Shown here in pieces: positions 5,085-19,689 of a DNA stretch of 32,574 nt (the first letter of the stretch is position 1; every line of letters begins with the position of its first letter). The notes under the pieces are model-generated. The model saw only the letters and a program-made list of their open reading frames with translations, did not search any database and was not told where the DNA came from. Source of the DNA: an uncultured Bacillota bacterium (GTDB lineage Bacteria > Bacillota > Dethiobacteria > DTU022 > UBA8154). Both the position numbers and the translations under genes were made by a program. Location: positions 1 through 32,574 of the forward strand of contig CALJJZ010000086.1 in NCBI GenBank assembly GCA_937973635.1, read 5' to 3'.

Positions 5085-5326
5085 GGTGGTGTCCTCCTGT
5101 GCATATCTTTAATCTGCGTTTAAAAGAAGCTGGGATGTGCCCCTGTTTTAAAGGCAACTTCCGCCTGAATGATAGTATAGCACTCCTTTCCTTTTTTTAA
5201 AAGTAAAAAGTGTCCTCATGGCGGAAAAACTGGCTAAATCCGGCCTGCAGAGAGAGGGGCCGGTAGGAAAGGAGAAGGAGCTGGCAGCGCTGTATATTGA
5301 TAAGCATAATAAACTGTCTAGCAGAT

Positions 5327-5341
5327 ATAGATATTATCTAT
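5327..5341. promoter_or_regulatory. 15-bp palindromic operator upstream of yedE
   Basis: ATAGATA-T-TATCTAT is a perfect odd palindrome that also satisfies the LysR-type T-N11-A spacing (T5328, A5340). The same ATAGA-N5-TCTAT frame occurs before yedF (17730-17744). A TATAAT (5366-5371) lies downstream, so the site sits upstream of a possible promoter, as expected for an activator. Confidence 0.5.
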
Positions 5342-5413
5342 TTCTCTGGAATGTGGGGTGCAGGTTATAATAAAAAGCGGTATTACATCTTAATTTATTT
5401 GGAAAGGAGTGGA

Positions 5414-6538
5414 GTGTTTTTGCGTGAAAAGACAGCTGTCATTGTCTCGGGTATTGTTATTGGCGTAATTACCCTTTTACTGGTAGTGTGGGGCAATCCG
5501 GCCAACATGGGCTTTTGTATCGCCTGTTTTGTCCGCGATATTGCCGGCGGGCTGGGCCTGCACCGGGCCGCTCCCGTCCAGTACCTGCGCCCTGAAATTA
5601 TGGGGCTGATCCTGGGAGCCTTTGTTACCGCCCTTTTCTTCCGGGAGTTCCGTTCCACGGGGGGGGCCAACGTAACCCTGCGTTTCATGCTGGGGATGTT
5701 TATGATGATGGGGGCCCTGGTCTTTCTTGGGTGCCCCTGGCGCATGTTGCTGCGCCTGGCCGGAGGGGACTTAAACGCTCTGGTGGCCCTGCCGGGCTAT
5801 ATCTTTGGTATCTGGGTGGGGACCCTTTTCCTGCAGCAGGGCTATTCCCTGGGGCAGGCGAAGGAGCAGAGCAGCCTGAACGGCCTTATTGCCCCCCTGC
5901 TGGCCTTTGCTTTGCTGGTCTTGCTCATTACCAGGCCTTCGTTGCTCTTTTTCAGCGAGCAGGGGCCCGGTTCCATGCGGGCGCCTATCTTTGTTGCCCT
6001 CCTGGCCGGCCTAGTGGTGGGGGTGCTGGCCCAGCGCACGCGTTTTTGCACCATGGGCGCCTTCCGCGACATCATCCTTTTCCGTGATTTTCACCTTTTT
6101 TCTGGTATTATTGCCCTTTTTGTGGTGGTTCTGGTGGGGAACCTCTTGCTCGGTTCCTTCAAGCTTGGCTTTACAGGCCAACCCGTCGCCCATACGGAGT
6201 GGCTCTGGAACTTCCTGGGTATGGGGATTGTAGGCTTCGCTGCTGTCCTGGCCGGGGGTTGCCCGCTCAGGCAGCTTATCCTCAGTGGCGAAGGCAATGG
6301 CGACGCTATGGCCACAGTCCTGGGCTTGACGGCAGGGGCCGCGGTCATGCACAATTTCGCCTGGGCCGCTAGCCCGGCGGGAGTGTCGGGGGGCACCAAG
6401 GTGATGGTTGTGGTGGTCTGGATCCTGCTGCTGGCCGTGGGCTGGTTTGTTGCGCGCCAGGCGCGGGAAAACGAGGCCAAAGTGCAGCAGGGGGAAAGCC
6501 TGAAAGGGCAAACCTCGGCAGTTGAAGTGAGCAGTTAA
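5414..6538 (+). CDS. yedE: YedE-type selenium-associated membrane transporter
   Basis: About 374 residues with roughly ten membrane helices, in the YeeE/YedE (DUF395) superfamily of sulfur/selenium-compound permeases. Conserved cysteines sit where expected: MGFCIACFVRD near the start, FLGCPWRMLLR, then in the second half RFCTMGAFRD and AGGCPLRQL, showing the internal duplication. The YedE branch is consistently linked to selenium-using genomes and is proposed to import a selenium species; the substrate is not shown here. The start is GTG 5414, 5 nt after AAGGAG; TTG 5420 is an alternative. It is followed after 35 bp by a TusA-like carrier in the same operon, and preceded by the palindrome at 5327-5341. 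Confidence 0.85.
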   Translation: MFLREKTAVIVSGIVIGVITLLLVVWGNPANMGFCIACFVRDIAGGLGLHRAAPVQYLRPEIMGLILGAFVTALFFREFRSTGGANVTLRFMLGMFMMMGALVFLGCPWRMLLRLAGGDLNALVALPGYIFGIWVGTLFLQQGYSLGQAKEQSSLNGLIAPLLAFALLVLLITRPSLLFFSEQGPGSMRAPIFVALLAGLVVGVLAQRTRFCTMGAFRDIILFRDFHLFSGIIALFVVVLVGNLLLGSFKLGFTGQPVAHTEWLWNFLGMGIVGFAAVLAGGCPLRQLILSGEGNGDAMATVLGLTAGAAVMHNFAWAASPAGVSGGTKVMVVVVWILLLAVGWFVARQARENEAKVQQGESLKGQTSAVEVSS

Positions 6539-6573
6539 AGCGATCATCAAAGGAGAAAGGAAGGGCTTGGAGC

Positions 6574-6798
6574 ATGGGCATAAAAGTGATCGACTGTTGC
6601 GGGCTTTCCTGCCCTGAGCCGGTACTGCGGGTACGGGGGGCTTTGCAGGATCCCAGCCTAGAGGAGGTGCAGGTCAAGGTCAGCGCCGCCGTAGCCAGGG
6701 ACAATGTGAGCCGCGCGGCTAAAAGCCTAGGCTGGCAGGTGGGGGTAGAGGAGGCTGATGACTGTTTCCTGCTCACCTTGAGCCGTAAGGCAAAGTAA
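6574..6798 (+). CDS. TusA/SirA-like sulfur (selenium) carrier
   Basis: A 74-residue single-domain TusA-fold protein. The active motif is C13-P-E-P in GLSCPEPVLRVRGAL; the Cys carries persulfide (or perselenide) in this family. The N-terminal CC pair (C8, C9) is extra. It sits directly after yedE and upstream of a terminator, making a two-gene unit. It is shorter than YedF (no DsrE-like half) and probably hands on the imported chalcogen; that role is inferred from context. Confidence 0.88.
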   Translation: MGIKVIDCCGLSCPEPVLRVRGALQDPSLEEVQVKVSAAVARDNVSRAAKSLGWQVGVEEADDCFLLTLSRKAK

Positions 6799-6823
6799 AG
6801 AAAATTGAAGCCTTAACGGTGGT

Positions 6824-6867
6824 CCAAGGGGCGCTCTGCCAGCTTGAAGCGCCCTTTGGCTTTTTTT
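6824..6867 (+). terminator. Intrinsic terminator of yedE-tusA
   Basis: Stem CCAAGGGGCGC (6824-6834) / GCGCCCTTTGG (6849-6859), one G-T pair, then C and seven Ts. Confidence 0.85.
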
Positions 6868-6894
6868 GCGGTGTTTTGTCCGCCCGCCGCCCTG

Positions 6895-7164
6895 TCAGCC
6901 AGGCCGCCTGCCTCCCAAAAAGGGTTTTCCTTGCTCGTTTTCTGGCAGAAGATGCCCCCCCTCAATGAGGACACCGCAAGCCTGCAGGAAAACCTTTATC
7001 TCCTCTGCATCGGCTGGAGTGCAACGCAAGGCTGTGCCGCAGCTGGAACTGATGCGGCGGGGGACAGGCACCATCTTGAAGGCCCACTTTTGTCCCGACA
7101 GCACCTTTTCCGCTTTGATGGCCTGGTAGGTGCTGATAAAAGTAAAATAATAATTTCCTGTCAT
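6895..7164 (-). CDS. DUF3343 protein (putative Se/S carrier), copy 1
   Basis: An 89-residue protein of the DUF3343 family. It shows the family core YYFTFISTYQAIKAEKVL, KMVPVPRRISSSCGTALRC (paired Cys in SCG-x-ALRC) and a following alpha/beta stretch. The family is predicted to be a selenium/sulfur carrier and travels with yedE, yedF and selD. Start ATG 7164 has GAGAGAGGAA just before it; the frame open further upstream is not conserved. It faces the yedE-tusA unit tail to tail. The C-terminus (after about residue 78) is Gly/Pro-rich and unlike copy 2. Confidence 0.85.
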   Translation of the reverse strand: MTGNYYFTFISTYQAIKAEKVLSGQKWAFKMVPVPRRISSSCGTALRCTPADAEEIKVFLQACGVLIEGGHLLPENEQGKPFLGGRRPG

Positions 7165-7240
7165 TTCCTCTCTCTCCCTCCCCTGCTTATTATAACAGCC
7201 CGCCCTGAAAAAAGGAAACGGCAATCCCTTGCAACCTAAG

Positions 7241-7270
7241 TTGTTTTTTTTCAAAAATAACCTGTATTAT
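7241..7270 (+). promoter_or_regulatory. Candidate promoter for the STAS gene
   Basis: TTGTTT (7241-7246) and TATTAT (7265-7270) separated by 18 bp, about 110 bp before the STAS start. Confidence 0.35.
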
Positions 7271-7378
7271 TTGGCGAGATAGCAGGATTATGGGGAGAAA
7301 ATGACGTATTTAATTTATTATTACTGCCATCTCCTTCCCTTAGACAACCACTCCGTAAACTGGGAGGTATTTAATAAT

Positions 7379-7681
7379 ATGGAAGTGGAAAAGAAAAATG
7401 AGCAGGAGGCCGTTATCCACCTGGGGGAAAAGGTAAATATCGTTAATTCTCCGGAGTTAAAACAAAAGCTGCAGGCCCTTTATGATGAAGGATATAAAAC
7501 AATCATCGTAGATTTTAGCGGGACAAAGATGATAGACAGCTCCTGCCTGGGAAAGCTCCTCATGTTCCAGAAAAAACTAAAAGAGCGGGAGGGAGAGCTA
7601 AGGATTATCAATGTCACCAGCGAATATATCAGCAAAATGTTCAATGTCATCCAGCTGTACAAGGTCATAAACATCAGCTAA
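7379..7681 (+). CDS. STAS-domain anti-sigma factor antagonist-like protein
   Basis: A 100-residue single STAS domain, in the fold of SpoIIAA/RsbV. The pattern AVIHLGEKVNIVNSPELKQK followed by IIVDFSGTKMIDSSCLGKLL matches the family; the S-S pair after IDS is where partner kinases phosphorylate in SpoIIAA-like proteins. ATG 7379 follows GGGAGGT (7362-7368); the frame upstream of it has no conservation. No anti-sigma kinase is adjacent. It lies 90 bp before the c-di-GMP gene, so a joint signalling role is possible but unproven. Confidence 0.85.
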   Translation: MEVEKKNEQEAVIHLGEKVNIVNSPELKQKLQALYDEGYKTIIVDFSGTKMIDSSCLGKLLMFQKKLKEREGELRIINVTSEYISKMFNVIQLYKVINIS

Positions 7682-7771
7682 ACCCGTAGACGCGGCTTTT
7701 GCCCCTTTCTTTGCGGGTTGCTGAGGTTTCTCCTAAACGGGAGGAGAAGGGGAGGAAAGAGGGGTAAGCAT

Positions 7772-9577
7772 GTGGATGTTTTGTTAGTGTCTGGCTATGA
7801 GCCGGCCCTGGAAGAATTGAAGGCCCTGGTCAGGGGCGAGTCCCCTGCCAGCAACCTGTCCTTATGCCTTTCCCTGGACGATGCCCTGTGCCGGGCCGGG
7901 AAAGAGCATTTCCCTGTCATGCTCATTGATTACACCCTCCTGCATAAGGACATCCTGGCCCTGCAGCGGCTGTCCGCCCTGGGAGAGGGGAGTTTCCTGC
8001 TCCTGTACCGTGTGCCAGAGGAGCGGCGGGAGACCTTCGCGGGCGGGGAATATGCCCGCCAGGAAAACCTTTTTACCCTGGGCTTTCCCCACGATGCCGG
8101 TTTCAGCACGGCTTTGAGGATGGCTCTGCGGTTTGCCCGCAGGCTCGCTCCCCTGCCCCATCTCCTGGAAAAGGAAGAGCTATTCCGTTATCTAGCCGAG
8201 TTTTCTCCTTTCCCCCTGGTTATTGTCAGCGCAAAGGGCGTCTATGAGTATATCAACCCCCGTTTCACAGAGGTGTTCGGCTACGGCCTAGAGGATCTGC
8301 CTGACGAGAAGGCTTGGTTTAAACTCGCTTTTCCCGACCCTCATTACCGCAGCAAAGTGGAAAAGGAGTGGCTGGCTTCCCTGGAGGAAGCCGGCCCGGA
8401 GGCGACTGTCCAGGCAGCCCACATCATCACTTGTAAGGGCGGGCGGCGTTGTGAGACCCTCTGCCGGGCTGTAAAGACCAGGAGCGGCAAGCTGCTTTTG
8501 AGCTACGAGGATATGACGGAGCGCAAAAAAGCCGAGGCAAAGCTCCACTATATCAGTTTCCACGACCAGCTCACGGGTTTGTACAACCGTGCTTTTTTTG
8601 AAGAAGAGCTAAAAAGGCTGGATACGGGAAGGCAGCTCCCTTTAAGCCTCATTGTCGGTGATACCAACGGGATAAAGCTTGTCAACGAAGCTTTCGGCCA
8701 CCGGCAGGGGGACGAGCTGCTGACCAGGGCGGCAGGGATCTTGAAAAAGCACTGCCGACGCGAAGATATTGTCTGCCGCTGGGGCGGGGACGAATTTGCC
8801 ATCCTGCTGCCCCGCATGAAAGAAGAAGGCTGCAAGGAGCTGCTAAAGCGCATTAAGGCCGGGCTGGAAGAGGCTACCCCTTTTCCCATTAAACTGAGCA
8901 TGTCCCTTGGCAGCGCCACCAAAAAGGACGTATTCCAGGACGTTGGGGAGGTGCTAAAAATAGCTGAAGCACAGATGTACAGCCAGAAGCTCTCTGAGGC
9001 TAAAGAATTTCGCCAGGCGGTGATCGCTTCCCTCGTGCGCACCCTGGGGGAGAAGGATTACGAGACAGAGGAACATTCCTGGCGCATGCAAAACCTCTCT
9101 GTGCAGTGGGCTGGCTATTTTAAACTTAAAGATAGCGAGCTGGAAGACCTGATTATGGCCGTGACGCTGCATGACATCGGCAAGATCGCCGTCCCGGAGG
9201 AGATCCTTATGAAAACGTCGCCCCTTTCAGAGAATGAATGGGCAATTATCAAGGAGCACGCTGAAAGGGGCTACCGTATCGCCATCTCCTCCGAGGAGCT
9301 GCTCCATGTCGCCCCCTATATCCTTTTCCACCATGAGCGCTGGGACGGGCTGGGTTATCCCCGGGGCCTCAAAGGGGAGGAGATCCCCCTTCTCTCCCGC
9401 ATCCTGGCCATCCTCGATGCCTATGACGTAATGACCAACGGGCGTCCCTATAAGGCAGCCATCAGCGAAGCAGAGGCGATGCAGGAACTCTGGCGTTGCG
9501 CCGGCAAACAGTTTGACCCGCACCTGGTTAAAATATTGCTAGAAGAAATGGGGCCAAAAATAAAAAACAAAGTTTAA
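7772..9577 (+). CDS. REC-like / PAS / GGDEF / HD-GYP c-di-GMP signalling protein
   Basis: A 601-residue protein that could both make and break cyclic di-GMP. Residues 1-125 look like a receiver: MLID53 is in the phospho-acceptor place, but the N-terminal acidic pair is replaced by SG, so it is probably degenerate. A PAS domain spans about 145-255 (FSPFPLVIVSAKGVYEYINPRF). GGDEF spans 265-425 with WGGDEF intact near 337-342 and an I-site RxxD (RRED) five residues before it, so product inhibition is likely. HD-GYP spans about 430-595, with HDIGK near 467 and HHERWDGLGYP near 520. Start GTG 7772 follows GAGGGG by 7 nt. No membrane segment is seen, so it should be cytoplasmic. Confidence 0.92.
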   Translation: MDVLLVSGYEPALEELKALVRGESPASNLSLCLSLDDALCRAGKEHFPVMLIDYTLLHKDILALQRLSALGEGSFLLLYRVPEERRETFAGGEYARQENLFTLGFPHDAGFSTALRMALRFARRLAPLPHLLEKEELFRYLAEFSPFPLVIVSAKGVYEYINPRFTEVFGYGLEDLPDEKAWFKLAFPDPHYRSKVEKEWLASLEEAGPEATVQAAHIITCKGGRRCETLCRAVKTRSGKLLLSYEDMTERKKAEAKLHYISFHDQLTGLYNRAFFEEELKRLDTGRQLPLSLIVGDTNGIKLVNEAFGHRQGDELLTRAAGILKKHCRREDIVCRWGGDEFAILLPRMKEEGCKELLKRIKAGLEEATPFPIKLSMSLGSATKKDVFQDVGEVLKIAEAQMYSQKLSEAKEFRQAVIASLVRTLGEKDYETEEHSWRMQNLSVQWAGYFKLKDSELEDLIMAVTLHDIGKIAVPEEILMKTSPLSENEWAIIKEHAERGYRIAISSEELLHVAPYILFHHERWDGLGYPRGLKGEEIPLLSRILAILDAYDVMTNGRPYKAAISEAEAMQELWRCAGKQFDPHLVKILLEEMGPKIKNKV

Positions 9578-9616
9578 GAGCAGCGCCTTTTACCTGCACG
9601 GCGCAAGAGGTCAAAG

Positions 9617-9636
9617 CCGGCGCCCCGCCGGTTTTT
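9617..9636 (+). terminator. Intrinsic terminator after the GGDEF/HD-GYP gene
   Basis: CCGGCG (9617-9622) / CGCCGG (9626-9631) followed by five Ts. Confidence 0.7.
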
Positions 9637-9653
9637 GCAGCGGCAAAGGTGCT

Positions 9654-9682
9654 TTGTTTTTTGGGCGTTTTTCTGCTATAAT
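9654..9682 (+). promoter_or_regulatory. tRNA-Arg promoter
   Basis: TTGTTT (9654-9659), a 17-bp spacer and perfect TATAAT (9677-9682), ending 22 bp before the tRNA. Confidence 0.75.
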
Positions 9683-9704
9683 AGGGGCAAACAGTATTTT
9701 ACAT

Positions 9705-9780
9705 GCGCCCGTAGCTCAGGGGACAGAGCAACGGACTTCTAATCCGTTGGCCGGAGGTTCGAATCCTCCCGGGCGTGCCA
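9705..9780 (+). tRNA. tRNA-Arg (anticodon UCU)
   Basis: A 76-nt cloverleaf with CCA encoded. Acceptor arms GCGCCCG (9705-9711) and CGGGCGT pair with one G-U. The D arm contains GCTC-AGGGGACA-GAGC. The anticodon loop is CTTCTAA (anticodon TCT) on an ACGGA/TCCGT stem. The T arm carries GGTTCGAATCC. It decodes AGA and AGG. It has its own promoter and terminator, so it is a single-gene unit. Confidence 0.97.
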
Positions 9781-9794
9781 GATGAAAGCAGCGT

Positions 9795-9836
9795 GGATGT
9801 CCAATTTGTTGGGGTTTTGTGGACATCCTTTTTTTT
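9795..9836 (+). terminator. Intrinsic terminator after tRNA-Arg
   Basis: Stem GGATGTCCA (9795-9803) / TGGACATCC (9820-9828) followed by eight Ts (9829-9836). Confidence 0.9.
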
Positions 9837-9902
9837 CTGCCCGTTGTCCTTCTTACATCCAGCCACTTTATAGCCATTATAATTAAGTGTGATAGTAAAT
9901 AT

Positions 9903-9942
9903 GCCTGTGGGATAACCCTAAAGATGCGGGTTATCCACAGGC
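9903..9942. repeat. Inverted repeat carrying a perfect DnaA box
   Basis: Arms GCCTGTGGGATAACCC (9903-9918) and GGGTTATCCACAGGC (9928-9942) differ by one inserted base. The right arm contains TTATCCACA (9931-9939), the consensus DnaA box; the left arm has it broken by the extra base. There is no T-run after it, so it is not a normal terminator. It lies in a 330-bp AT-rich gap between the tRNA terminator and marR. Confidence 0.6.
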
Positions 9943-9995
9943 TCTATAATTGCTTGGACAACACTGCGTGCTGCCCGTACCTTTCGTATTTGTTG

Positions 9996-10007
9996 ACAGT
10001 TAACTGT
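9996..10007. promoter_or_regulatory. Palindrome ACAGTTAACTGT, possible distal MarR site
   Basis: A perfect 12-bp palindrome sharing the GTTAAC core with the two marR promoter sites below. It overlaps a TTGACA (9993-9998) that has no convincing -10 partner. Confidence 0.35.
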
Positions 10008-10100
10008 TCTAACTGAAATTTGTTTTTACACAAAATTTAGGACTTGATCGACCTGTAAAAAGTTTATCCTAATTTACTAAAAATTTTCTTCTGCAAAATA

Positions 10101-10155
10101 GTTTACAAGTTAACCAAAGCGGCATATAATATTTATATATAGTTAATATGTTAAC
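10101..10155 (+). promoter_or_regulatory. marR promoter with two flanking GTTAAC-type operators
   Basis: A near-consensus promoter, TTTACA (10102-10107), 17 bp, TATAAT (10125-10130), is bracketed by GTTTACAAGTTAAC (10101-10114) over the -35 and GTTAATATGTTAAC (10142-10155) near the start site. Both elements share the GTTnA-N4-GTTAAC frame. This layout suits autorepression by the MarR protein encoded immediately downstream. Confidence 0.6.
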
Positions 10156-10169
10156 CGAGGAGGGCTCCC

Positions 10170-10637
10170 ATGGCCGGCATCAGAGAGATCTGGTTTTTTG
10201 CCCACAATATCATTCGCTCCTCCAGGCAGATGATTAACGAAGGGTTAAAACCCCTGAATTTAAGCAGTGCCGAAGGAAATATCCTGCTGCACCTTTTAAC
10301 GCGGGAGGAGGGGCCCTGGCAGGAGGAAATTGTGGAGCAGCTGGATGTCAGCAAGCCCGCCGTCTCCCGTGCCTTGGAATCCCTGGAACGGAAAGGGTAT
10401 GTGACGCGGGAGAAAGACCCTGTTGATAGGAGGGCCAGCCGCGTGTTCCTTACAGCTAAAGCCCGCAAGATTGCCGCCCCCGTAGAGCAGGTATATAATG
10501 AGGTTTTCTCTGTGGCAGCAGAGGGGATCAGCGAAGCGGAGATCAGGGATTTCATCGGGCTGTTTGGCCGTGTCTCGGAAAACTTTACGGCAGCCCGGGC
10601 TAGGATAAGCGGGCGGCAAACAGGGGGGTGCTGCTGA
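10170..10637 (+). CDS. MarR-family transcriptional regulator
   Basis: A 155-residue winged-helix repressor-type protein. The DNA-binding region is LSSAEGNILLHLLTREEGPWQEEIVEQLDV then SKPAVSRALESLERKGYVTR and the wing EKDPVDRRASRVFLT, all typical of MarR. ATG 10170 follows GAGGAGGG. It heads an operon whose next gene starts at the overlapping TGATG (10635-10639). Likely ligand unknown; the regulated genes are membrane proteins, and the repeated GTTAAC sites upstream suggest autoregulation. Confidence 0.9.
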   Translation: MAGIREIWFFAHNIIRSSRQMINEGLKPLNLSSAEGNILLHLLTREEGPWQEEIVEQLDVSKPAVSRALESLERKGYVTREKDPVDRRASRVFLTAKARKIAAPVEQVYNEVFSVAAEGISEAEIRDFIGLFGRVSENFTAARARISGRQTGGCC

Positions 10638-11368
10638 TGCGGGGGGATCTTCTGGGCGCAGCCATCCTGCTGGCTTATTACCTGGTAATTTGTGTGCTGC
10701 TGCCAACCCTGCTGAAGGTGCACTTAAGGGTGCCCGGCGAATTGGTGCGGAAGATGCAGCATGTGGCTTACAGCCTTTCTGTCTTCCTGCTTCTGGAGCT
10801 TTTCAGCAGGTGGTATTTTGCCGTGGGTGCTGCTTTGCTGCTGCTCCTTCTGGCTTACCCCGTGCTTTTGCTGGTGGAAAAAACGTCCTTTTATCAGCGG
10901 ACCTTTGTGGACCGCACGGCAAAGGGAGGCGAACTGCGCAGGCAGCTTATCTATGTGCAGCTTTCCTTTGCCCTCCTTATTTTTATCTTCTGGGGTCTGC
11001 TGGGTGCCAGGTGGCACTACGTGGTGGCGGTGGCCGTGATGGCCTGGGGCTTTGGCGATGCGGCGGCGGCCCTTGTGGGGAAAGCCTGGGGCTGCCGCCG
11101 TGTAATCAACAAATATATTGAGCGGGCCAAAACTTATGAAGGGGCAGCCGCCATGATCCTGGTGGCGGCGCTGGCCCTCTTTTTTACCCTGCTTTGCTAC
11201 GCGGGCAAGGTGTGGTATGTAAGCCTGCCCGTGGCCCTCATTGTGGCACCTGTCTGCGGCATTGTAGAGCTGTTTTCCAGGCGGGGCATTGATACGCTGA
11301 CGGTACCCCTTTCTGCAGCCGCCCTGCTTTTGCCCCTGATCCAGCTATTTTCTTTTCTGGGGTGGTAA
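10637..11368 (+). CDS. COG0170-type membrane kinase / cytidylyltransferase family protein
   Basis: A 243-residue protein with about seven membrane helices. The loop AWGFGDAAAALVGKAWG followed by a KTYEGAAAM motif is the signature shared by dolichol kinase, phytol kinase and phosphatidate cytidylyltransferase-like proteins. These act on lipid alcohols or phospholipid precursors using a nucleoside triphosphate. Which substrate this one uses cannot be read. ATG 10637 overlaps the marR stop, with a G-rich ribosome site (10623-10628); GTG 10628 is possible. Translational coupling with marR is likely. Confidence 0.75.
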   Translation: MRGDLLGAAILLAYYLVICVLLPTLLKVHLRVPGELVRKMQHVAYSLSVFLLLELFSRWYFAVGAALLLLLLAYPVLLLVEKTSFYQRTFVDRTAKGGELRRQLIYVQLSFALLIFIFWGLLGARWHYVVAVAVMAWGFGDAAAALVGKAWGCRRVINKYIERAKTYEGAAAMILVAALALFFTLLCYAGKVWYVSLPVALIVAPVCGIVELFSRRGIDTLTVPLSAAALLLPLIQLFSFLGW

Positions 11369-11370
11369 CG

Positions 11371-12021
11371 ATGGAAGGCCTTAATGAAAAACAGACAGCC
11401 GGCCGGGAAAAAACCTTGCTTGCCGCGCTGCTGCTGAGCATGTGGGCACCTCTGGCTACGGGCCTGGCCGTGTTCATGAGCAGCTCCACCACCCAGCTGG
11501 CCGATTTTATCCGCCGTAGCGTGGAGCTCTTTTCCCTGTTTGTCTCGTGGTGGTTTTTTCGCTGCCTGAAACAGCAAGAAAAACCGGACCCCCGGGAAAA
11601 GGCTATGCTGGAGTCTGTTGCGGGTCTCGGCGTGGCTGCCGCCCTCTTTTGCTCTGCTGTTGTGATGTTGATCCTGGCCTTTTCCCGTGCCGGTGTTCCT
11701 GCGCCGGGTGGCAACGTGTACCCGGGGCTGGCCATTGCCGTTTTGGGGCTGATAACCAATACCTGGTTCTGGCGTCGTTATACAACCTATATCAGGGAAC
11801 AATTCAACCCCGTCATCGAGGCCCAGCGGCAGCTGTACCGCGCCAAAGCCTGCGTGGATCTCTGTATCATTATTGCCCTTGGCGCCGTGGCGGTGTATCC
11901 GGGCCATGCGGCCACGCGCTACGTGGACTTCACAGGCTCGCTTATTGTGGCCGCATACCTGCTCTGGAGCGGCTTTGCCGCCCTGCGCACGGTAATACAG
12001 AACGGGCTTACGGTCACCTAG
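11371..12021 (+). CDS. CDF-like (cation efflux) transmembrane-domain protein
   Basis: A 216-residue protein with about six membrane helices. The stretch SSTTQLADFIRRSVELFSLF resembles the helix-2 metal-site region of cation diffusion facilitators, and DFTGSLIVAAYLLWSGFAAL matches their helix 5-6 region. The usual HxxxD metal residues are altered (RxxxE), and the cytoplasmic C-terminal domain is absent, so metal transport is uncertain. It starts at ATG 11371, two bases after the previous stop, in one operon with marR. Confidence 0.65.
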   Translation: MEGLNEKQTAGREKTLLAALLLSMWAPLATGLAVFMSSSTTQLADFIRRSVELFSLFVSWWFFRCLKQQEKPDPREKAMLESVAGLGVAAALFCSAVVMLILAFSRAGVPAPGGNVYPGLAIAVLGLITNTWFWRRYTTYIREQFNPVIEAQRQLYRAKACVDLCIIIALGAVAVYPGHAATRYVDFTGSLIVAAYLLWSGFAALRTVIQNGLTVT

Positions 12022-12101
12022 AGCTGAAAATTTAGAGGCGAATTAGTGGCGGGAGCTACAGCCCCAGGAAAGGTTATCGGAGAAACTGTGCAGAAAATAC
12101 C

Positions 12102-12924
12102 TTAAACTTTACTTAAGCGGCAGAGCAGCCGCCGGGCACAGGAACCTCCCACAACCGGTTCCCAGTCATTTCTTAAGCTGGTCAATACGTTAATGTTTGT
12201 GCCCCATAATCTTTTTTCCTGATCCTGCTCCTCCGGCAGGTACCAGTGTCCTCTGGTATATACTACATTGTCGTGCAAGCCCTGAACAATATGAGCTTTC
12301 CTATGTACCTTTTCCTTTTTCCCCGGCACTTCTATGGCAACCCAATCTCCCTCACTCTTAACCACAAATGGGCTGTCTTTGTCTCCGGAATGGATCGGGG
12401 ATCGATGACAATAATCTTTGCCCCGGCTTTTCTGGCCCGCTGCACCACTAAGGCTTTAGCCGGGTTTGTGTGCGGCTGGTTGACACCCCATAGCGCAATG
12501 GTTTGCGTTTTGTCGGCATCTTTGTCTGTAATAAGGTTAAAATATGTCAGCAGGCTGCCAAAGGTAAGGTTGTCGGCAACCAACTGCGGTGTAAAACAGA
12601 TATGATGGTCGTGCCTGAAGAAATTGGGCGTTTCTATCGCTTGGGCGAAAGCCAGCCAGATTAATGGATCTTTGAGATCTCCTTTATTGCCTCCTCCCAT
12701 GAAACCCTTTGCCATCTTTGAGCACCCCGTGGTCCTATCTGCTTCAGGGGATACAGGCAAAGGAATCCCCTGGATAAAGGGTTTGCGGGATCACCTTTGG
12801 TCTTAATCTTATCGCCGGTTTTAGAAACGATCATGCCGCAGCAATTAAGACAAAGCTTACAGGTAGTGTTAATTTCGCTCTGCTCTGAATCTGCCCACAC
12901 CAGGTCTTTATTGAGCGTATGCAT
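12102..12924 (-). pseudogene. Molybdopterin oxidoreductase A, frameshifted and internally deleted
   Basis: Three pieces of one gene are readable on the minus strand. 12924-12661: start after GGGGGAG, with the Fe-S segment TTCKLCLNCCGMIV and WQRVSWEEAIKEI, ending in TAA at 12661. About 12665-12370, another frame: LIWLAFAQAIETPNFFRHDH, then AKALVVQRARKAGAKIIVID. About 12380-12102, third frame: DSPFVVKSEGDWVAIEVPGK, the molybdopterin-dinucleotide domain. A full enzyme of this class has several hundred more residues between the second and third pieces, so a large internal deletion is certain in addition to frameshifts. Confidence 0.85.
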
Positions 12925-13223
12925 ACTTTTTCTCCCCCTATCCAAGCCGGAAACCAGTAAATCTACAGGTCAGGCTCCGTCATTTCTTGATGCAACCTCC
13001 CTTGCTGCCTGTTTATTTCCCTTTTCTTGCACTGATTCCTGCTTTCTGGCCCTGAAAAGGTCCTTACATACTTTGCGCTACGGCTATGCTCTCATATCCC
13101 ACATTAATGCGCCAGGTTGCTTACTTGCCGGTATGCGTGAAAATTGCTGGTCAGAAGGAGATAAAGTGCTATAATGAAAAATATGCAGCAGCCCTTTTGT
13201 GTCATTTTATTAGCGGAGGGTGA

Positions 13224-13538
13224 ATGGTTTTGCCTGACGTTACCCAGAAAAAGATCGCCCTGCTCGTAGCAAATTTGTGTACCTTTTCCACGGCTTTTAT
13301 GATTTCCGTAATTAATATTGCCCTGCCTTCCATTGGACGGGAATTCGCCGTGGATACAATATGGTTGAGCTGGGCGGTTACTTCTTTCCTCTTGACTTCT
13401 ACAATGCTGATGCTTCCCGTGGGTAAAGCGGCGGATATTTACGGGCGCAAAAAAATTTTTCTTTACGGCAATATCATTTTCTTCTTGGCCACCCTGCTCT
13501 GTGCCATTTCCCCGGCCATGGCCAGGTTGAGGCTGTAA
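13224..13538 (+). pseudogene. Truncated DHA2-type MFS drug transporter (first ~95 residues)
   Basis: The frame opens after GGAGGG (13214-13220) and gives the N-terminus of an EmrB/QacA-like transporter: helix 1 LVANLCTFSTAFMISVINIAL, the PSIGREF box, then helix 2 and the motif-A-like GKAADIYGRKKIFLYGN, and helix 3. Conservation stops at AISP (about 13513), where the sequence joins antisense DNA of a second molybdopterin oxidoreductase. Only three of fourteen helices remain. TATAAT at 13170-13175 may be the old -10 box. Confidence 0.85.
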
Positions 13539-13837
13539 AGATTGCACATGCAAACCATGCCCGGCGTGATCATGTTTTGCGGGTTACCAAAAAGGTTGAA
13601 AAAACGTGAGCGCGCCCAGAAAAGATCGCTGCGGTAGGTGCCTTCCGCCGCCAGCAGGGTCTCGGGGCCATATTTGTCTTTCAACCTGGAAAGCCTGTCG
13701 GCGATCTCGTCCATGGCCTCTTCCCAGGGTAGGGGCTACCATTTCCCCTCCCCCCTTTTGCCCGTACGCTTCAGGGCATGCTGCAATTGATCGGGGTGAT
13801 AGAGCCACCTGGGGGCGTTGACGGCCCGGTGGTAACT
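13515..13837 (-). pseudogene. Molybdopterin oxidoreductase B fragment with nonsense codon
   Basis: Minus-strand frame reads YHRAVNAPRWLYHPDQLQ, then RTGKRGEGKW-stop-PLPWEEAMDEIADRLSR and further to MCNLYSLNLAMAG, the region following the Fe-S domain in this enzyme class. The stop (TAG, 13736-13738) stands where relatives have Gln (CAG), so it is a C-to-T nonsense change. The fragment lacks both the N-terminal Fe-S cysteines and everything after about 110 residues. It covers the same region as part of oxidoreductase A with different sequence, so these are two different genes. Confidence 0.8.
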
Positions 13838-13950
13838 TGCTCTACGTTTACTATAGCACCAACAAGCCCCTGAGAATATGATAATTTTTAACTTTTTACG
13901 GTCTGCCTGCTGATACCGCTGATACCGTGGTTAAGTTTTATCCTGGAATA

Positions 13951-15090
13951 TCAAAGGGGCACTCGCTTAGAGTACCCCTTTGGAGAAAAGATTACTTTTT
14001 GACAGGAAGTTGATTTCCCTGCGGGCCGCCCGTTATTTTTCAAAAGGTAAGCAAAGCTTCTCTGCGGCTGCTGTTCCAGTCCACTTTGGCCTGGAGGTTT
14101 TCTGCGGCAAAACGCAGGGGCACGTAGGTGCGGCCATTTTGGGACACCGGGGCCACATCCATCATTCATTTTGGTCGCCCCATTGACCCGGATCTCTTTT
14201 TTGTCAAGCCACATTTCCACTGTATTTCCTTTTGCCGTAAGGGTAATTTTGCGCGTCTTCTCCTCCCACTTCAATGTCCCTCCCATGGCCTCGACCACTG
14301 CACGGATGGGGATCATTGTCCTGCCGGAGATGACAATGGGCGTGGTCCCCCGGCCCGGGTCAATTTCCTGGCTGACGCCGTTTACGCTCATCCGCGGGTT
14401 ATCCAGCTGCAAGAGGATATAATTACCGTCTGCAGGCGGTGTTGCCGGGGGCGTACCGGGAGCTGCTGTTTCCCTCCATTCATAGATATAAGCGTAGCCG
14501 TAACCGTTGCCCAGATTCAGCCAGATTGCTTTTTTGTCCCCTTTTTTCCCTGCCGGGATGACTTTGGAGCTTTCAAAATAGGTCTTCATGTTTCTTAAAA
14601 TTTCCCCCCCGCCTGCAGCACGGAAAGGAATTTTCCCCGCCGTGGCGTAGCTGGCACCGGGCAGGTCAGCGGAGTCAAAGTGAGCGCTGGCCCAAACGCT
14701 GGAATCCCACCCGGAGGAGAAACTTAATACCTTCATCTCGATGTTGAAGCCGGTTTTTTTCTCCGGTGCCAGGTAAGCGGGAGGCTTTTCCCAGTTAACC
14801 TGATAGTTGACGTAGGCTAATGTCTTGCCGTTTGCATCTTTGCGGGTATGAGAAAAACGCATTTCCCCTTCAGAACCTTCTCCGGCGAAGGTGTCATAAA
14901 GGCCTCTGCCCTGTTCATAGGCGCCGCCAAGGATGGTTATGTCAAGGGCCGAAGGATAATATTTGCTTTCCACCAGATGCCAGCCGCCCTGCGCGGTAGA
15001 GGCGCAGACTTTGCCGGTGAAAATCATGCCTGACAGCAGGGCAAGGGTGAAGAAAGCCGCAAGGAGAAGGGCTTTGCTGCCTTTTTTCAT
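13951..15090 (-). CDS. Secreted copper-amine-oxidase N-terminal domain protein, C-terminus frameshifted
   Basis: 379 codons as read. Residues 1-31 are a signal peptide (KKGSKALLLAAFFTLALLSG ... VCAS). The middle (about 32-215) is an unrecognised extracellular domain. From about 230 a copper amine oxidase N1-like domain begins: ILLQLDNPRMSVNGVSQEID, GRTMIPIRAVVEAMGGTL and KITLTAKGNTVEMWLDKKEI. The last repeat is broken: after NGATKM the expected DVAPVSQNGRTYVPLRFAAE is in another frame, ending at TGA 14040-14042. The cause is a CATT duplication (14163-14170). The last ~64 residues as read are therefore out of frame. RBS GAGGAGTG supports ATG 15090. Confidence 0.75.
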   Translation of the reverse strand: MKKGSKALLLAAFFTLALLSGMIFTGKVCASTAQGGWHLVESKYYPSALDITILGGAYEQGRGLYDTFAGEGSEGEMRFSHTRKDANGKTLAYVNYQVNWEKPPAYLAPEKKTGFNIEMKVLSFSSGWDSSVWASAHFDSADLPGASYATAGKIPFRAAGGGEILRNMKTYFESSKVIPAGKKGDKKAIWLNLGNGYGYAYIYEWRETAAPGTPPATPPADGNYILLQLDNPRMSVNGVSQEIDPGRGTTPIVISGRTMIPIRAVVEAMGGTLKWEEKTRKITLTAKGNTVEMWLDKKEIRVNGATKMNDGCGPGVPKWPHLRAPAFCRRKPPGQSGLEQQPQRSFAYLLKNNGRPAGKSTSCQKVIFSPKGYSKRVPL

Positions 15091-15285
15091 TTTTTTTCAC
15101 TCCTCAGTTAATTTTCTTTGGGCGTAATTTTAGCCGCTCTTTTCGGGATCAAGCATAACCTTTGCCGGTCCGCCTGCAAACGCCCGAAAGGGGCGGGAAA
15201 ACAAAAAAAGAACCCACACAAAAAAGGTGAGCTCCTCTCTCTGGCAGTAAACTAAAAAAACTGCGGTGGTGGAGAGGCAAGCAAT

Positions 15286-16402
15286 TTAGCAGCGGTTAGA
15301 GGGGAACATTTTTACCAGTTCCATCTTGGAGTTAATATTTAATTTTTGATAAATATTTTTAACATGGTACTTTAAGGTGTTCTCGCTGATATAAAGTTTT
15401 TTTGCTATACCTTTATAGGTATAACCGCACAGGAGCAATTTAATTACTTCCATTTCCTTGGCCGTAAGGTGATAGTTTTCCTTGAAGTCCAGGAAAGCTT
15501 TACCCGGTTTATCTTCCGGGGCTTCCGTAAATTTAATGAGGAAGGGATGATTTTGGAGCTGCCGGAAAAGCTGTACATTCAGGATGGGGAGCAAGATTAA
15601 GACAGCAAAGATGACAACCAGGGCAAGGGAGGATACCGTGAGGTATTCGCTCCCGTAATAGCTGATCCTGTCACCTGCAATGCTGCCGGTCAGGATCCCT
15701 AAAACGTTCATAGACAGCCCGGTACATCAACCCCGAATTTATGGTAATAACAAAAATAAAGAGGCAAAAAAAAATAAAGGGTTTGGCCGTGGCCGTAATT
15801 TGCCGGGGCAGCTCCGTAATGTCGATTTTACTGAAAACCTTTTTCCCGGGAGCGGTTTGCAGTTTAAAGAAAATATACGCCGCCGCTGCCAGGGCAGCCA
15901 CAGCAGCAGCGAGGCCGAGTTCGGCCGATATTTTGACCGCCAGCACGTTGACGGCGATCATTTAAATATTAGAGAAAATAAGCACATCTGCCGCTGTTCT
16001 AAAACGTTGTTCCGGAGCAAAATAGTTTTTAAAACAGTACCCCCAGCCGGCCACCACCAGGCCCGAACAGTATGCCAGCACGACAATTGCCGGCTGCCAT
16101 AGCCGGGTAAAGGGAAGGTAAAAAAGAAGACTTCCAGCCAGAGAAACGCAGGTAGCCATAAAGATTACTCTCTGGGCGGCGGTCAGGTTTTTCAGCAGAA
16201 AACCGGCGCTAAACAAGCCGACAAAAGCCGTGAAGACGGCGGCAGCGGCAAGGGCTGCGCCGTCTGCTGCCGCCTTTGCTGCCAGGGCGTACAGGATCTG
16301 TCCTTCAAAAAGAAAAGATAGATTCCAGGCGCTGAAGCAACAGAAGCCGATAAGGGAGAGGCCTCCCCGGGTCAGTTTTTTTTTCAAAATTATAGTTCCC
16401 AT
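15286..16402 (-). pseudogene. Membrane-anchored LuxR-family regulator, broken
   Basis: One gene in three pieces. 16402-15962: four membrane helices, ending ...DVLIFSNI then TAA (15962-15964). 15961-about 15711: same frame after the stop, helices LAAAVAALAAAAYIF and FIFFCLFIFVITINSG, ending by frameshift. 15711-15286: last helix SSLALVVIFAVLILLPIL, then a LuxR helix-turn-helix, LTAKEMEVIKLLLCGYTYKG and ISENTLKYHVKNIYQKLNIN. Full members have about 12 helices and 480-500 residues; here about four helices are missing at the second junction, so a deletion accompanies the frameshift. Such regulators often sit beside anaerobic oxidoreductases, like the two fragments nearby. Confidence 0.82.
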
Positions 16403-16849
16403 CTGTCTATGTTTATACCCTATTTTTCTAAGGAGCTGCTTTTTAAGGACGTCTTTTTGCGTCTTTTTCTATTTATGGTCTGCTTTCTGCCCTGGGGAAA
16501 TTTTATTTTTCATTGCAAAGATTGGGACTATTATAACAAATACTGGAATTGCCCGCAAGAACCATTTGTCAAATAACAGCGAGAGGACAAGGGCCGTCTC
16601 CCTATCTTGTTCAGGGGAAGTTGTTTGAAGATAGGCCTAAAAAGCCGTTTGCTGTCCCGCCAAACATGACGGCTGGATGTACATGTTTGACCACCATGCC
16701 TTCTTCCACAGCAGGCTCTCTTACCTGGCTGGAAATAGAATTTTTTGGGGCGGTTTCTGGCGGCTTTGCAGGAGATCGGCCCTCTGGTGCCGAATAATTT
16801 TATCAGTAACACAATATTTACTTTTGATAACACTACTGGAGGGTTCGAG
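16403..16849 (+). other. 447-bp gap before fmdE with two leader hairpins
   Basis: No credible gene is seen. Two hairpins stand out: CCTATCTT (16601-16608) / AAGATAGG (16628-16635), and AGCCGT (16643-16648) / ACGGCT (16669-16674) with a TTTG/CAAA extension inside. A leader of over 180 nt may therefore be made. No riboswitch class could be matched by eye, and no terminator stem was found between the hairpins and fmdE. Confidence 0.35.
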
Positions 16850-17470
16850 ATGTGCAGGGAAAAAACACCATGGGAACGGGCCGTGGAATTTCACGGCCAT
16901 ACCTGCATGGGGCTGGCTGTGGGCTTCCGGGTAGCGGAGGCGGCGCTGCAGGCCCTGGGAAATAAACGGGATGTGGACGAAGAGATGGTGGCCGTTGTGG
17001 AAAATGACAGCTGTGCTGTGGATGCCATCCAGGTAATAACGGGCTGTACCGTGGGGAAAGGGAACATGATCCTACGCGATTACGGCAAACACGGCTATAC
17101 CTTTGCTTTGCGGAAGCAGAAAAAAGCAGTGCGTGTTCTGGCGAAATTCCCTGTCGGGCCTAAGCGGGCGGAACTGATGGCGCTGCGCCAGAAAGTCTCT
17201 GCTGGCGAAGCTTCTAAAGAGGAGCAGGCCCTTTTGCAGGAGCTGGGCAGAGAGCAGCTTGAAAGTTATTTTGCCCAGCCCCTGGAGGAGGTCTGCGAGG
17301 TCAAAGAAGTACCCTTTGACCTGCCGGAAAAAGCGCGTATCTTCCCTTCGGTAACCTGCGCCAGCTGCGGCGAGGAAGTGATGGAGCCCCGGGCCCGCCT
17401 GAAAAACGGCAAGCCCGTCTGTCTACCCTGTGCTGAAAAGTACGGACGGGGCTGGGGGGGCGGCTGCTAG
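16850..17470 (+). CDS. fmdE: FmdE family (formylmethanofuran dehydrogenase subunit E-like) protein
   Basis: 206 residues. The N-terminal FmdE domain contains FHGHTCMGLAVGFRVA (H15, H17, C19) and later VVENDSCAVDAIQVITGCT, residues that bind a metal in this family. A C-terminal zinc ribbon (TCASCGEEV ... PVCLPCAEKY) follows. Despite the name, stand-alone FmdE proteins in bacteria lack the methanogenesis enzyme; they occur with molybdenum/tungsten enzymes and their role is not settled. ATG 16850 follows CTGGAGGG. It is monocistronic, ended by the terminator at 17567. The neighbouring oxidoreductase remnants fit a molybdenum-linked past. Confidence 0.9.
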   Translation: MCREKTPWERAVEFHGHTCMGLAVGFRVAEAALQALGNKRDVDEEMVAVVENDSCAVDAIQVITGCTVGKGNMILRDYGKHGYTFALRKQKKAVRVLAKFPVGPKRAELMALRQKVSAGEASKEEQALLQELGREQLESYFAQPLEEVCEVKEVPFDLPEKARIFPSVTCASCGEEVMEPRARLKNGKPVCLPCAEKYGRGWGGGC

Positions 17471-17566
17471 CAGGCCGGGTCCGTACCACGGCCCAAAATA
17501 AAGGGAAAGGCAAGAGAATGATTTTTCTGCCTGGGATCCCGATGGAAGTATTTCGCCTGCTAGATA

Positions 17567-17620
17567 AAAAGGGGTGTAGGGTTATGCTCAGCAATTCCTG
17601 TACCCCTTTTATATTTTTTA
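17567..17620 (+). terminator. Intrinsic terminator of fmdE
   Basis: AAAAGGGGTGTAGG (17567-17580) pairs with CCTGTACCCCTTTT (17597-17610), followed by an AT-rich tract with TTTTTT. The remaining gap to yedF (17621-17825) holds no gene; it carries the palindrome at 17730-17744. Confidence 0.85.
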
Positions 17621-17729
17621 TATTTTATATCTTGAATATCTTGAGCTTCCCTGTGCCGGGGCTTGTTGTTGCCAATTATGAGGCTGTAAAAAGGGTTATA
17701 GGTGTAAATTAATCAAAGGGGTTGTGTCC

Positions 17730-17744
17730 ATAGAAAGATTCTAT
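17730..17744. promoter_or_regulatory. 15-bp palindromic operator upstream of yedF
   Basis: ATAGAA-AGA-TTCTAT, perfect arms with a 3-nt centre, T-N11-A spacing (T17731, A17743). It has the same ATAGA-N5-TCTAT frame as the yedE site, about 80 bp before the yedF start. Confidence 0.5.
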
Positions 17745-17825
17745 TAGCCAGGGCAGTATGCTTCTGCTATGCTCAAAAAGGGAAGTCGGCTTTAATTTTA
17801 TGGCTCAAAGAGGAGGGTTCTGCTA

Positions 17826-18452
17826 TTGCAGCGTAAAGAAATCGACAACAGGGGTTTAGCCTGCCCTCAGCCAGTGGTCAATACCAAAAAAGCCTTGGCT
17901 GAGCTGGCCGGGGAAGGTTCTCAAGCTTTTATGCTAACAGTCATTGTGGACAACGAGGCGGCCAAGGAAAACGTCAGCCGCTATGCCCGGGCGGCGGGGC
18001 ATCAGGTCTCGGTGGAAGAAAAAGAAGACGGTACCTATATCTTTATTCAAAATAAAACTACGGATGACCTGGAGGTCGGAGAGCTTTCCTGCGGCGAGGC
18101 CGGCCAAACACAGAGGGGAACAGTCTTTCTCATTACTTCCGCCACGCTAGGCCAGGGCAGCGAAGAGCTAGGAAAAATCTTAATGCGCAGCTTTATTTTT
18201 GCCCTGAAAGAAGGCGGCGTTTTGCCTGCCAAGATGCTGTTTTTAAACAGCGGCGTCTTCCTCACGACGGAAGGGAGCCCCGTTTTGGACGAGCTGAAGG
18301 AGCTGGCGGCAAGGGGCACGGAGGTCTTCTCCTGCGGCACCTGCCTGGATTTTTACCAGCTTAAAGAGAAGCTGCAGGTGGGCCAGGTAACCAACATGTA
18401 TGATACGGTGGAAAATATAAGTTCTGCTGCGTTTAAATGTATTACCCTCTAA
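17826..18452 (+). CDS. yedF: YedF, selenium-associated sulfurtransferase-like protein
   Basis: A 208-residue two-domain protein. Residues 1-75 are a TusA-like domain with the active C13-P-Q-P (GLACPQPVVNTKKAL). From about residue 95 is a DsrE-like domain: GTVFLITSATLGQGSEELGK, FLNSGVFLTTEGSPVLDELK, and the conserved FSCGTCLDFYQL cysteine pair. This fused form is the hallmark of selenium-using genomes and is thought to handle selenide or perselenide for SelD. Start TTG 17826 follows GAGGAGGG by 8 nt. Convergent with the LysR gene 27 bp away. Confidence 0.92.
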   Translation: MQRKEIDNRGLACPQPVVNTKKALAELAGEGSQAFMLTVIVDNEAAKENVSRYARAAGHQVSVEEKEDGTYIFIQNKTTDDLEVGELSCGEAGQTQRGTVFLITSATLGQGSEELGKILMRSFIFALKEGGVLPAKMLFLNSGVFLTTEGSPVLDELKELAARGTEVFSCGTCLDFYQLKEKLQVGQVTNMYDTVENISSAAFKCITL

Positions 18453-18479: not shown

Positions 18480-19403
18480 TTATGATTTTAAAGGTGCTGC
18501 AGCGTGCCCGGGGGAGAGGGAGAGGAGGCTTTTGCTGTAAGTGATGAATTCAAAGAGGTAAGGGGGCTGGGTTTTCTTTTTGTTATAGGCGAAGTAAAAG
18601 GTGCGTTTTTCTTTAAGCTCTTTTAGCCTGTAGGCGTTAATGTAACCGCTTTGCTGGTAATCCAGGGCGGCGATCTCCGAGATGATAGCCAGCCCCATCC
18701 CTTCCCTGACGGCCTGCTTGATGGATTGGACGTTGTCAAAGTAGGCGCTGGCGCGCAGGCGGGTTAAGGAGATGCCCGCCTGTCTGAGCATTTTCTCTAG
18801 GACCGCCTGGGTGCCCGAACCGGGCTTCCGGAGGATAAACTGGTAGTGCAACAGGGAATGGAGGGAAAGGGGTTCTTTGAAGCTTAAATTTTGGGGGGTG
18901 ATCAAGACCAGGTCCTCCTCCAAAAGGGTTATATATTCCAGCCTTTCGGTGAAATATTTTTCGCCCAGGATGCCCAGGTCTGCATAGTTTTTGAGCAGGC
19001 TCTCCGCCACGATTTCGGAGCTGTTTTGGGAGAGGGTAAAGGAGATCCCCGGGTACCTTAATGAAAATTGGGAGATGAGAAAGGGGGCAAGGTACTGGGC
19101 CGGGACCGTGCCTGCCCCCAGGCGGAGCGTCCCTTCTACCCTGCCTGTCCATTCTTTTAAGTCCCAGAGGGCCGTTTCCTGGAGCTTTAACAACTCCCGG
19201 CTCCAGTAATAGAGGCGCTCCCCAAAAGGGGTGAGCACCACCTCTTTCCCCAGGCGGTCAAAGATCTTTTGCCCGAAATGTTTTTCCAGGCTGCTGATGT
19301 GGGTGCTTACTGTGGATTGGCTGAGGAAGATCTCTTCCGCGGCTTTGGAAAAACTTTTTTTCTCTGCTACCTGGACAAAGATAGAAAGTTGGTGCAGCTG
19401 CAC
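18480..19403 (-). CDS. LysR-family regulator linked to selenium genes
   Basis: 307 residues. The winged helix-turn-helix (about 1-60) reads FSKAAEEIFLSQSTVSTHIS then LEKHFGQKIFDR. The rest is a LysR substrate-binding domain of the CysB-like type (GTLRLGAGTVPAQYLAPFL, LRKPGSGTQAVLEKML, VREGMGLAIISEIAAL). Start GTG 19403 follows GGAGGG by 6 nt. It lies 34 bp after the second DUF3343 gene in the same direction, so they are probably cotranscribed. LysR genes of this branch are known beside yedE/yedF/selD; the shared palindromes at 5327 and 17730 are candidate targets. Effector presumably a sulfur or selenium compound. Confidence 0.9.
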   Translation of the reverse strand: MQLHQLSIFVQVAEKKSFSKAAEEIFLSQSTVSTHISSLEKHFGQKIFDRLGKEVVLTPFGERLYYWSRELLKLQETALWDLKEWTGRVEGTLRLGAGTVPAQYLAPFLISQFSLRYPGISFTLSQNSSEIVAESLLKNYADLGILGEKYFTERLEYITLLEEDLVLITPQNLSFKEPLSLHSLLHYQFILRKPGSGTQAVLEKMLRQAGISLTRLRASAYFDNVQSIKQAVREGMGLAIISEIAALDYQQSGYINAYRLKELKEKRTFYFAYNKKKTQPPYLFEFITYSKSLLSLSPGHAAAPLKS

Positions 19404-19437: not shown

Positions 19438-19689
19438 TTATCCCCTGGCAAGTTGCTTCCTTGTCTCTGCAAGGCAATGGATACCACTATAGCTGACGTT
19501 ATGTTCCTGCAAAACCTTTTTAATCGGTTCTACCTCTGCCTTTTCACAGCGCAGGGCGATGCCGCAGCTCGTGCTGAGGGCACGGGGCACCGGGACCATG
19601 GCAAAGGGGCAGGGTGTATTTTGCAGGACCCGTTCAGCTTTGAGGGCAAAAAACATGGTGGGAAAAGTAAAATACCAGAGATTGGACAC
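19438..19689 (-). CDS. DUF3343 protein (putative Se/S carrier), copy 2
   Basis: An 83-residue DUF3343 protein, WYFTFPTMFFALKAERVL then AMVPVPRALSTSCGIALRC and a short C-terminal part, without the Gly/Pro tail of copy 1. The paired cysteines in SCG-x-ALRC are conserved. Start is GTG 19689, with AGGAGGG about 11 nt before it. First gene of a probable two-gene unit with the LysR regulator. Only moderately similar to copy 1, so not a recent duplicate. Confidence 0.85.
   Translation of the reverse strand: MSNLWYFTFPTMFFALKAERVLQNTPCPFAMVPVPRALSTSCGIALRCEKAEVEPIKKVLQEHNVSYSGIHCLAETRKQLARG

What the first reader, a model, noticed from the sequence alone, without database searches (positions are those of the whole stretch)
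5327..17744. Shared ATAGA-N5-TCTAT palindrome upstream of two selenium units
Two perfect 15-bp palindromes with the same half-sites occur 12 kb apart, at 5327-5341 before yedE-tusA and 17730-17744 before yedF. Both obey the LysR-type T-N11-A rule, and a LysR gene lies in the second cluster. I did not find the motif at other genes in this window. A selenium regulon with a named regulator and a defined operator would be a useful new prediction. The link from this LysR to these sites is inference.
Basis: partly seen in the sequence, partly recalled or inferred. Interest (0 to 1): 0.72.

Follow-up and report, generated by a model that had tools for sequence, protein, structure and literature searches.

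The report
Shared switch for bacterial selenium genes
The two matching DNA palindromes are real and are part of a widely conserved control site (two boxes 31 bases apart, at a fixed distance from the promoter) that sits in front of selenium uptake and handling genes in many anaerobic bacteria; it is probably read by a selenium-linked LysR regulator encoded elsewhere in the genome, not by the one in this window.

Summary
Confirmed and extended. Both perfect ATAGA-N5-TCTAT palindromes are at the stated coordinates. Their number in the genome is near chance (6, against 4 for the reversed control), but three of the six precede selenium-type genes, and the site is conserved in relatives. In 89 regions upstream of yedE, the real element is a tandem pair of LysR-type boxes, ATWG-N7-CWAT, 31 bp apart (30 in some), the second starting 38-39 bp before the -10. 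Exact boxes occur in 39/89 regions, against 3.9±1.7 in shuffles. A profile trained only on yedE promoters, this genome held out, also finds it before DUF3343-Sec-lyase operons, Sec-lyase genes, selD, lysR_Se and yedF in relatives. selA lacks it. In the window it precedes yedE, yedF (weaker) and selD (degenerate).

The likely regulator is a LysR_Se protein (NF040786), but not the window's copy: that subtype occurs in 5 of 121 genomes. This genome's other LysR_Se (contig C35) belongs to the clade found in the yedE operon or divergent from yedE in about 35 relatives, and its recognition helix covaries with the operator. No description of the operator was found in the literature searched. Binding and selenium response are untested.

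The parts
5296..5310 (+). box 1 of the yedE operator, ATTGATAAGCATAAT (upstream LysR-type box, one mismatch)
   Evidence: exactly 31 bp before box 2, as in relatives
5327..5341 (+). box 2 of the yedE operator, the perfect palindrome reported
   Evidence: conserved upstream of yedE in relatives
5366..5371 (+). predicted -10 of yedE, TATAAT, 39 bp from the start of box 2
   Evidence: same spacing (38 or 39) in 60 of 65 aligned promoters
5420..6538 (+). yedE (TIGR04112 putative selenium transporter), TTG start
   Evidence: 492 bits against cut-off 200
6574..6798 (+). TusA-like gene, same unit as yedE
   Evidence: PF01206
17730..17744 (+). box 2 of the yedF operator, the second perfect palindrome; no TTT after it and a poor box 1
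   Evidence: same arrangement before yedF of relative G005
17768..17773 (+). predicted -10 of yedF, TATGCT, with an extended TG, 38 bp from the start of box 2
17826..18452 (+). yedF (TIGR03527)
   Evidence: 224 bits against cut-off 110
18480..19403 (-). window LysR (NF040786 family) of a rare subtype; probably not the main reader of these sites
19438..19689 (-). DUF3343 / Se_S_carrier (PF11823), upstream of lysR on the same strand
   Evidence: operator upstream only marginal
22314..22328 (-). box 1 of a degenerate selD operator, ATCAGCTTTTTAAAT
22283..22297 (-). box 2 of a degenerate selD operator, ATTATAAAATAATAT followed by TT (AT-N11-AT)
   Evidence: stronger sites before selD in G007, G015 and G016
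22254..22259 (-). predicted -10 of selD, TATGAT, 38 bp from the start of box 2
21163..22212 (-). selD (TIGR00476) read through an in-frame TGA at 22162-22164, so SelD is predicted to be a selenoprotein; GTG start

Best explanation
The palindromes are the promoter-proximal boxes of a tandem LysR-type operator: ATWG-N7-CWAT, 16 bp, ATWG-N7-CTAT-TT. Box 1 lies about three helical turns upstream of box 2. Box 2 abuts a weak -35 and starts 38-39 bp before the -10. The operator defines a selenium supply regulon: yedE-tusA, yedF, DUF3343-Sec-lyase, selD in some genomes and lysR_Se itself in some. Most likely a tetramer of the yedE-linked type of LysR_Se (NF040786; in this genome the contig C35 copy) bridges the two boxes and activates these weak promoters when selenium is short. 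Shown by sequence: the operator, its geometry, its conservation and its targets. Inferred: the regulator's identity (strong comparative support), activation rather than repression (geometry), and the selenium signal (analogy with Methanococcus).
For: Footprint upstream of yedE: exact boxes in 39/89 regions against 3.9±1.7 shuffled; pairs at 30/31 bp 90 against 27±5.5; box 2 to -10 is 38 or 39 bp in 60 of 65. A profile trained without this genome finds yedE here (E 7e-5) and a Sec-lyase-like gene (E 0.003), and in relatives DUF3343-Sec-lyase, selD, lysR_Se and yedF promoters. The three top-scoring places in the window precede yedE, selD and yedF; 0/200 local shuffles reach each. 43 of 72 yedE regions of named genomes carry it. 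LysR_Se is divergent from yedE within 500 bp in about 27 relatives and in its operon in 8 (hand count). Recognition helix PT[VI]SxH against PSVSxR covaries with canonical against degenerate operator, 35/39 against 4/26. Tree: C35 LysR groups with the yedE-linked LysRs, the window LysR is a separate clade.
Against: No binding or expression data. The profile search did not report the yedF site, which lacks the TTT and a good box 1. The own C35 lysR has no operator upstream. The Sec-lyase sites in this genus have the -10 about 45 bp away rather than 38-39. The helix-operator covariation largely follows lineage. Activation under selenium limitation is analogy only.
Confidence: 0.78

Rival explanations
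1. The window's own LysR (18480-19403) reads both sites and controls the regulon, or at least controls the yedF site.
For: It is an NF040786 member, lies next to yedF and DUF3343, and has the His in its recognition helix (STVSTHISSLE).
Against: Its subtype is in 5 of 121 genomes, while the operator is in dozens without it, including G005, which has a near-identical yedF site. It forms a separate clade. G073 has the subtype but no operator before yedE. Its orthologues elsewhere are not next to yedE or yedF but next to genes that look like redox enzymes or are unassigned.
Confidence: 0.12
2. Another regulator, for example of the CRP/FNR family, reads a palindrome near -43; LysR_Se is only a neighbour.
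For: Box 2 is a symmetric palindrome just upstream of -35, a position also used by such activators (general knowledge).
Against: T-N11-A symmetry, a second box at 30/31 bp, the intergenic place between divergent lysR_Se and yedE, operators before lysR_Se itself (G020, G021), and helix covariation all point to a LysR protein.
Confidence: 0.07
3. Chance AT-rich palindromes, or plain promoter or terminator sequence, with no regulator.
For: The exact pattern is about as frequent in the genome as its reversed control (6 against 4), and likewise in most relatives.
Against: Conservation at fixed promoter geometry, recovery of other selenium genes by a held-out profile, local-shuffle controls, and absence before selA.
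Confidence: 0.03

Closest known systems
LysR_Se subfamily (Lin et al. 2015, PMC5322559; NCBIfam NF040786 LysR_Sec_metab)
   Same: The protein family and its link to selenium genes are already proposed there; both LysR_Se of this genome exceed the NF040786 cut-off.
   Different: The paper mentions no binding site or palindrome. Here an operator, its promoter geometry, a target list and a separation of paralogues are added. It suggested control of Sec biosynthesis genes; here selA shows no site, while supply genes do.
HrsM of Methanococcus (archaeal LysR_Se relative)
   Same: A LysR protein controlling selenium-dependent genes; yedE mRNA rises on selenium depletion there (PMC11097638).
   Different: HrsM is described as a repressor of Cys-encoding isogenes that binds between the frc and vhc operons.
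Classic LysR-type tandem operators (recognition and activation sites)
   Same: T-N11-A boxes, two sites on one face of the helix, regulator often divergent, proximal site next to -35.
   Different: Two similar palindromes at a nearly constant 31 bp, shared across several unlinked selenium genes. The comparison rests on general knowledge.

Membership tests
LysR-type tandem operator | T-N11-A palindrome | tested here: met
   Both palindromes, and the box consensus in relatives
LysR-type tandem operator | Second box on the same face of the helix | tested here: met
   31 bp in 51 and 30 bp in 14 of 65 aligned promoters; met before yedE and selD in the window, poor before yedF
LysR-type tandem operator | Fixed place relative to the promoter | tested here: met
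   Box 2 start to -10 is 38 or 39 bp in 60 of 65
LysR-type tandem operator | Regulator gene divergent from or linked to the target | tested here: met
   About 35 relatives; not in this genome, where the C35 copy is unlinked
LysR-type tandem operator | Binding by a LysR protein | not testable with these tools
   Needs gel shift or footprint
LysR_Se (NF040786) | Score above the curated cut-off of 250 | tested here: met
   Window copy 291.5; C35 copy 304.6
LysR_Se (NF040786) | yedE-linked clade, for the window copy | tested here: not met
   Separate clade with 100/100 support, found in 5 of 121 genomes
LysR_Se (NF040786) | yedE-linked clade, for the C35 copy | tested here: met
   Groups with yedE-linked LysRs of its family
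Selenium regulon | Targets are selenium genes beyond those used for training | tested here: met
   Sec-lyase, DUF3343, selD, lysR_Se and yedF in relatives
Selenium regulon | Includes the Sec-decoding gene selA | tested here: not met
   No convincing site in 17 genomes
Selenium regulon | Expression changes with selenium supply | not testable with these tools
   Needs RNA-seq or reporters

The most novel reading that the evidence does not exclude
A selenium-supply regulon spread across Clostridia and relatives, with one defined tandem operator read by LysR_Se of the yedE-linked type, which senses a selenium metabolite and tunes uptake, trafficking and selenophosphate synthesis together; operator and recognition helix have co-diverged between lineages.
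Probability: 0.65. Interest if true: 0.72.

Novelty: new member of a known kind. Interest (0 to 1): 0.64.

Why it matters
How bacteria sense selenium and control its uptake is poorly known. A LysR subfamily has been suspected since 2015, with no binding site in the papers read here. A sequence-level operator makes the regulon predictable in any genome, points to the right regulator among paralogues, supports YedE, YedF, DUF3343 and the Sec-lyase-like enzyme as one functional unit, and offers a route to the signal molecule and to new selenium genes.

Tried and rejected
Counting exact palindromes genome-wide: uninformative, near chance. Terminator reading of the C17 site: its stem is formed by the inner halves of the two operator boxes, which are conserved before the Sec-lyase gene in three sister genomes. 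Sites before FmdE: none; before the double-cubane gene and the DUF3343-lysR pair: marginal only. selA: none convincing. Rfam: only a tRNA in the window. Literature: no operator for LysR_Se or HrsM in the open papers found or read; the HrsM binding studies themselves are subscription papers and were not readable.

Full report
1. The observation. Exact ATAGA-N5-TCTAT occurs twice in the window, at 5327-5341 and 17730-17744. The genome has six exact sites against four for the reversed control pattern, and in most relatives the pattern is about as common as its control. The string alone therefore proves nothing. Of the six sites, three precede yedE, yedF and a Sec-lyase-like gene (C17; TIGR01977). 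Two lie inside unrelated genes and one at an intergenic spot with no selenium gene evident.

2. What the site is. I collected 89 regions upstream of yedE from relatives. Many carry the site at a constant place, usually with a second copy 31 bp upstream (30 bp in many members of family f7). The consensus is ATWG-N7-CWAT, 16 bp, ATWG-N7-CTAT followed by TTTC or TTGT. The second box starts 38 or 39 bp before the -10 in 60 of 65 aligned promoters. Exact boxes are in 39 of 89 regions against 3.9±1.7 in shuffles, and pairs at 30/31 bp number 90 against 27±5.5. The promoter search that placed the -10 preferred a distance of 39, so this constancy is partly built in; the alignment shows it without that preference. 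The -35 hexamer would begin right after box 2 and is poor. This is the layout of a LysR-type activator site (general knowledge of that family).

3. In the window. yedE has box 1 (5296-5310), box 2 (5327-5341) and TATAAT (5366-5371). yedF has box 2 (17730-17744) and TATGCT (17768-17773) at the same spacing, but a poor box 1; relative G005 has the same arrangement before its yedF. A matrix scan of the window puts yedE (41.4), selD (27.7, minus strand, boxes 22283-22297 and 22314-22328) and yedF (20.0) on top; shuffled windows reach at most 8.1. Those shuffles use window-wide composition, so the local shuffles are the fairer control: 0 of 200 reach any of the three.

4. The regulon. A sequence profile from 37 yedE promoters, with this genome left out, was searched in 120 genomes. 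Apart from yedE it finds DUF3343-Sec-lyase operons, lone Sec-lyase genes, lysR_Se (G020, G021), selD (G015) and yedF (G002, G003). In the distant genome G102 it finds genes of a PrxU-type peroxiredoxin and a C_GCAxxG_C_C protein, families that include selenoproteins. Weak hits before unrelated genes also occur. selA has no convincing site in the 17 genomes tested, so the regulon looks like selenium supply rather than Sec decoding. Where yedF sits inside an operon, as in most of family f3, it has no site of its own.

5. Breadth. 43 of 72 named yedE regions carry the operator with at most 1 of 100 shuffles as good. They include Caloramator proteoclasticus DSM 10124, Flavonifractor An82 and An306, Maledivibacter halophilus and Sedimentibacter hydroxybenzoicus DSM 7310 (names, sites).

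6. The regulator. LysR_Se (NF040786) is divergent from yedE within 500 bp in about 27 relatives and in the yedE operon in 8 (counted by hand), so the operator lies between the two genes or at the head of the operon. This genome has two LysR_Se over the cut-off: the window copy and one at C35:82915-83829. They are 36% identical. Window-type proteins (at least 56% identity) occur in 5 of 121 genomes and form a separate clade. The C35 copy groups with the yedE-linked LysRs of its family. The recognition helix is mostly PT[VI]SxH where the operator is canonical (His type: canonical in 35 of 39 genomes) and PSVSxR where it is degenerate (canonical in 4 of 26). One genus of family f3 has LysRs nested in the C35 clade (G033, G060), and its members G033, G037 and G061 have canonical operators. 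This fits co-inheritance of regulator and operator, though the whole locus may have been transferred. The window LysR also has the His, so some cross-binding is possible.

7. Mechanism. Most likely a LysR_Se tetramer bridges both boxes on one face of the helix and activates weak promoters when selenium is scarce. Activation is inferred from geometry. The signal is inferred from Methanococcus, where yedE mRNA rises about 5 log2 units on selenium depletion and selenophosphate has been suggested as the cue (PMC11097638).

8. Comparison. Lin et al. 2015 (PMC5322559) proposed LysR_Se as a selenium regulator from gene context and mentioned no binding site or palindrome. HrsM is its archaeal relative. 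The operator, its geometry, the target list and the separation of paralogues appear new within the open literature that could be searched.

Noticed in passing
window 21163-22212 (-): selD has an in-frame TGA at 22162-22164 in the catalytic N-terminal region, so SelD is predicted to be a selenoprotein; all relatives with a full-length selD match show the same single TGA.
   Followed up: partly
L286:4252-4297 (own genome, contig C17, about 137251-137296): A tandem pair of boxes lies downstream of the Sec-lyase gene and upstream of a sugar-type ABC transporter operon followed by a double-cubane-like gene; perhaps a transporter under selenium control.
   Followed up: partly
window 6895-7254 (-): A second DUF3343 / Se_S_carrier gene (PF11823) lies convergent to yedE-tusA.
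   Followed up: no
window 12102-13714 (-): Several short open frames look like pieces of one molybdopterin oxidoreductase, suggesting a broken gene (by eye, no family search).
   Followed up: no
L334-L337: Orthologues of the window LysR in G020, G073, G076 and G096 sit beside genes that look like redox enzymes (FAD or 2Fe-2S type) or are unassigned, not beside yedE or yedF; this subtype may control something else.
   Followed up: partly
L004:1501-1515 (own genome, contig C57): An exact intergenic ATAGATAATGTCTAT lies 63 bp upstream of a small minus-strand gene with a CxxC-CC motif, with no selenium link evident.
   Followed up: no
L268 and L275 (G102): In a distant Bacillota genome the operator precedes genes of families that include selenoproteins (PrxU peroxiredoxin, C_GCAxxG_C_C), so the regulon may include selenoproteins in other lineages.
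   Followed up: partly
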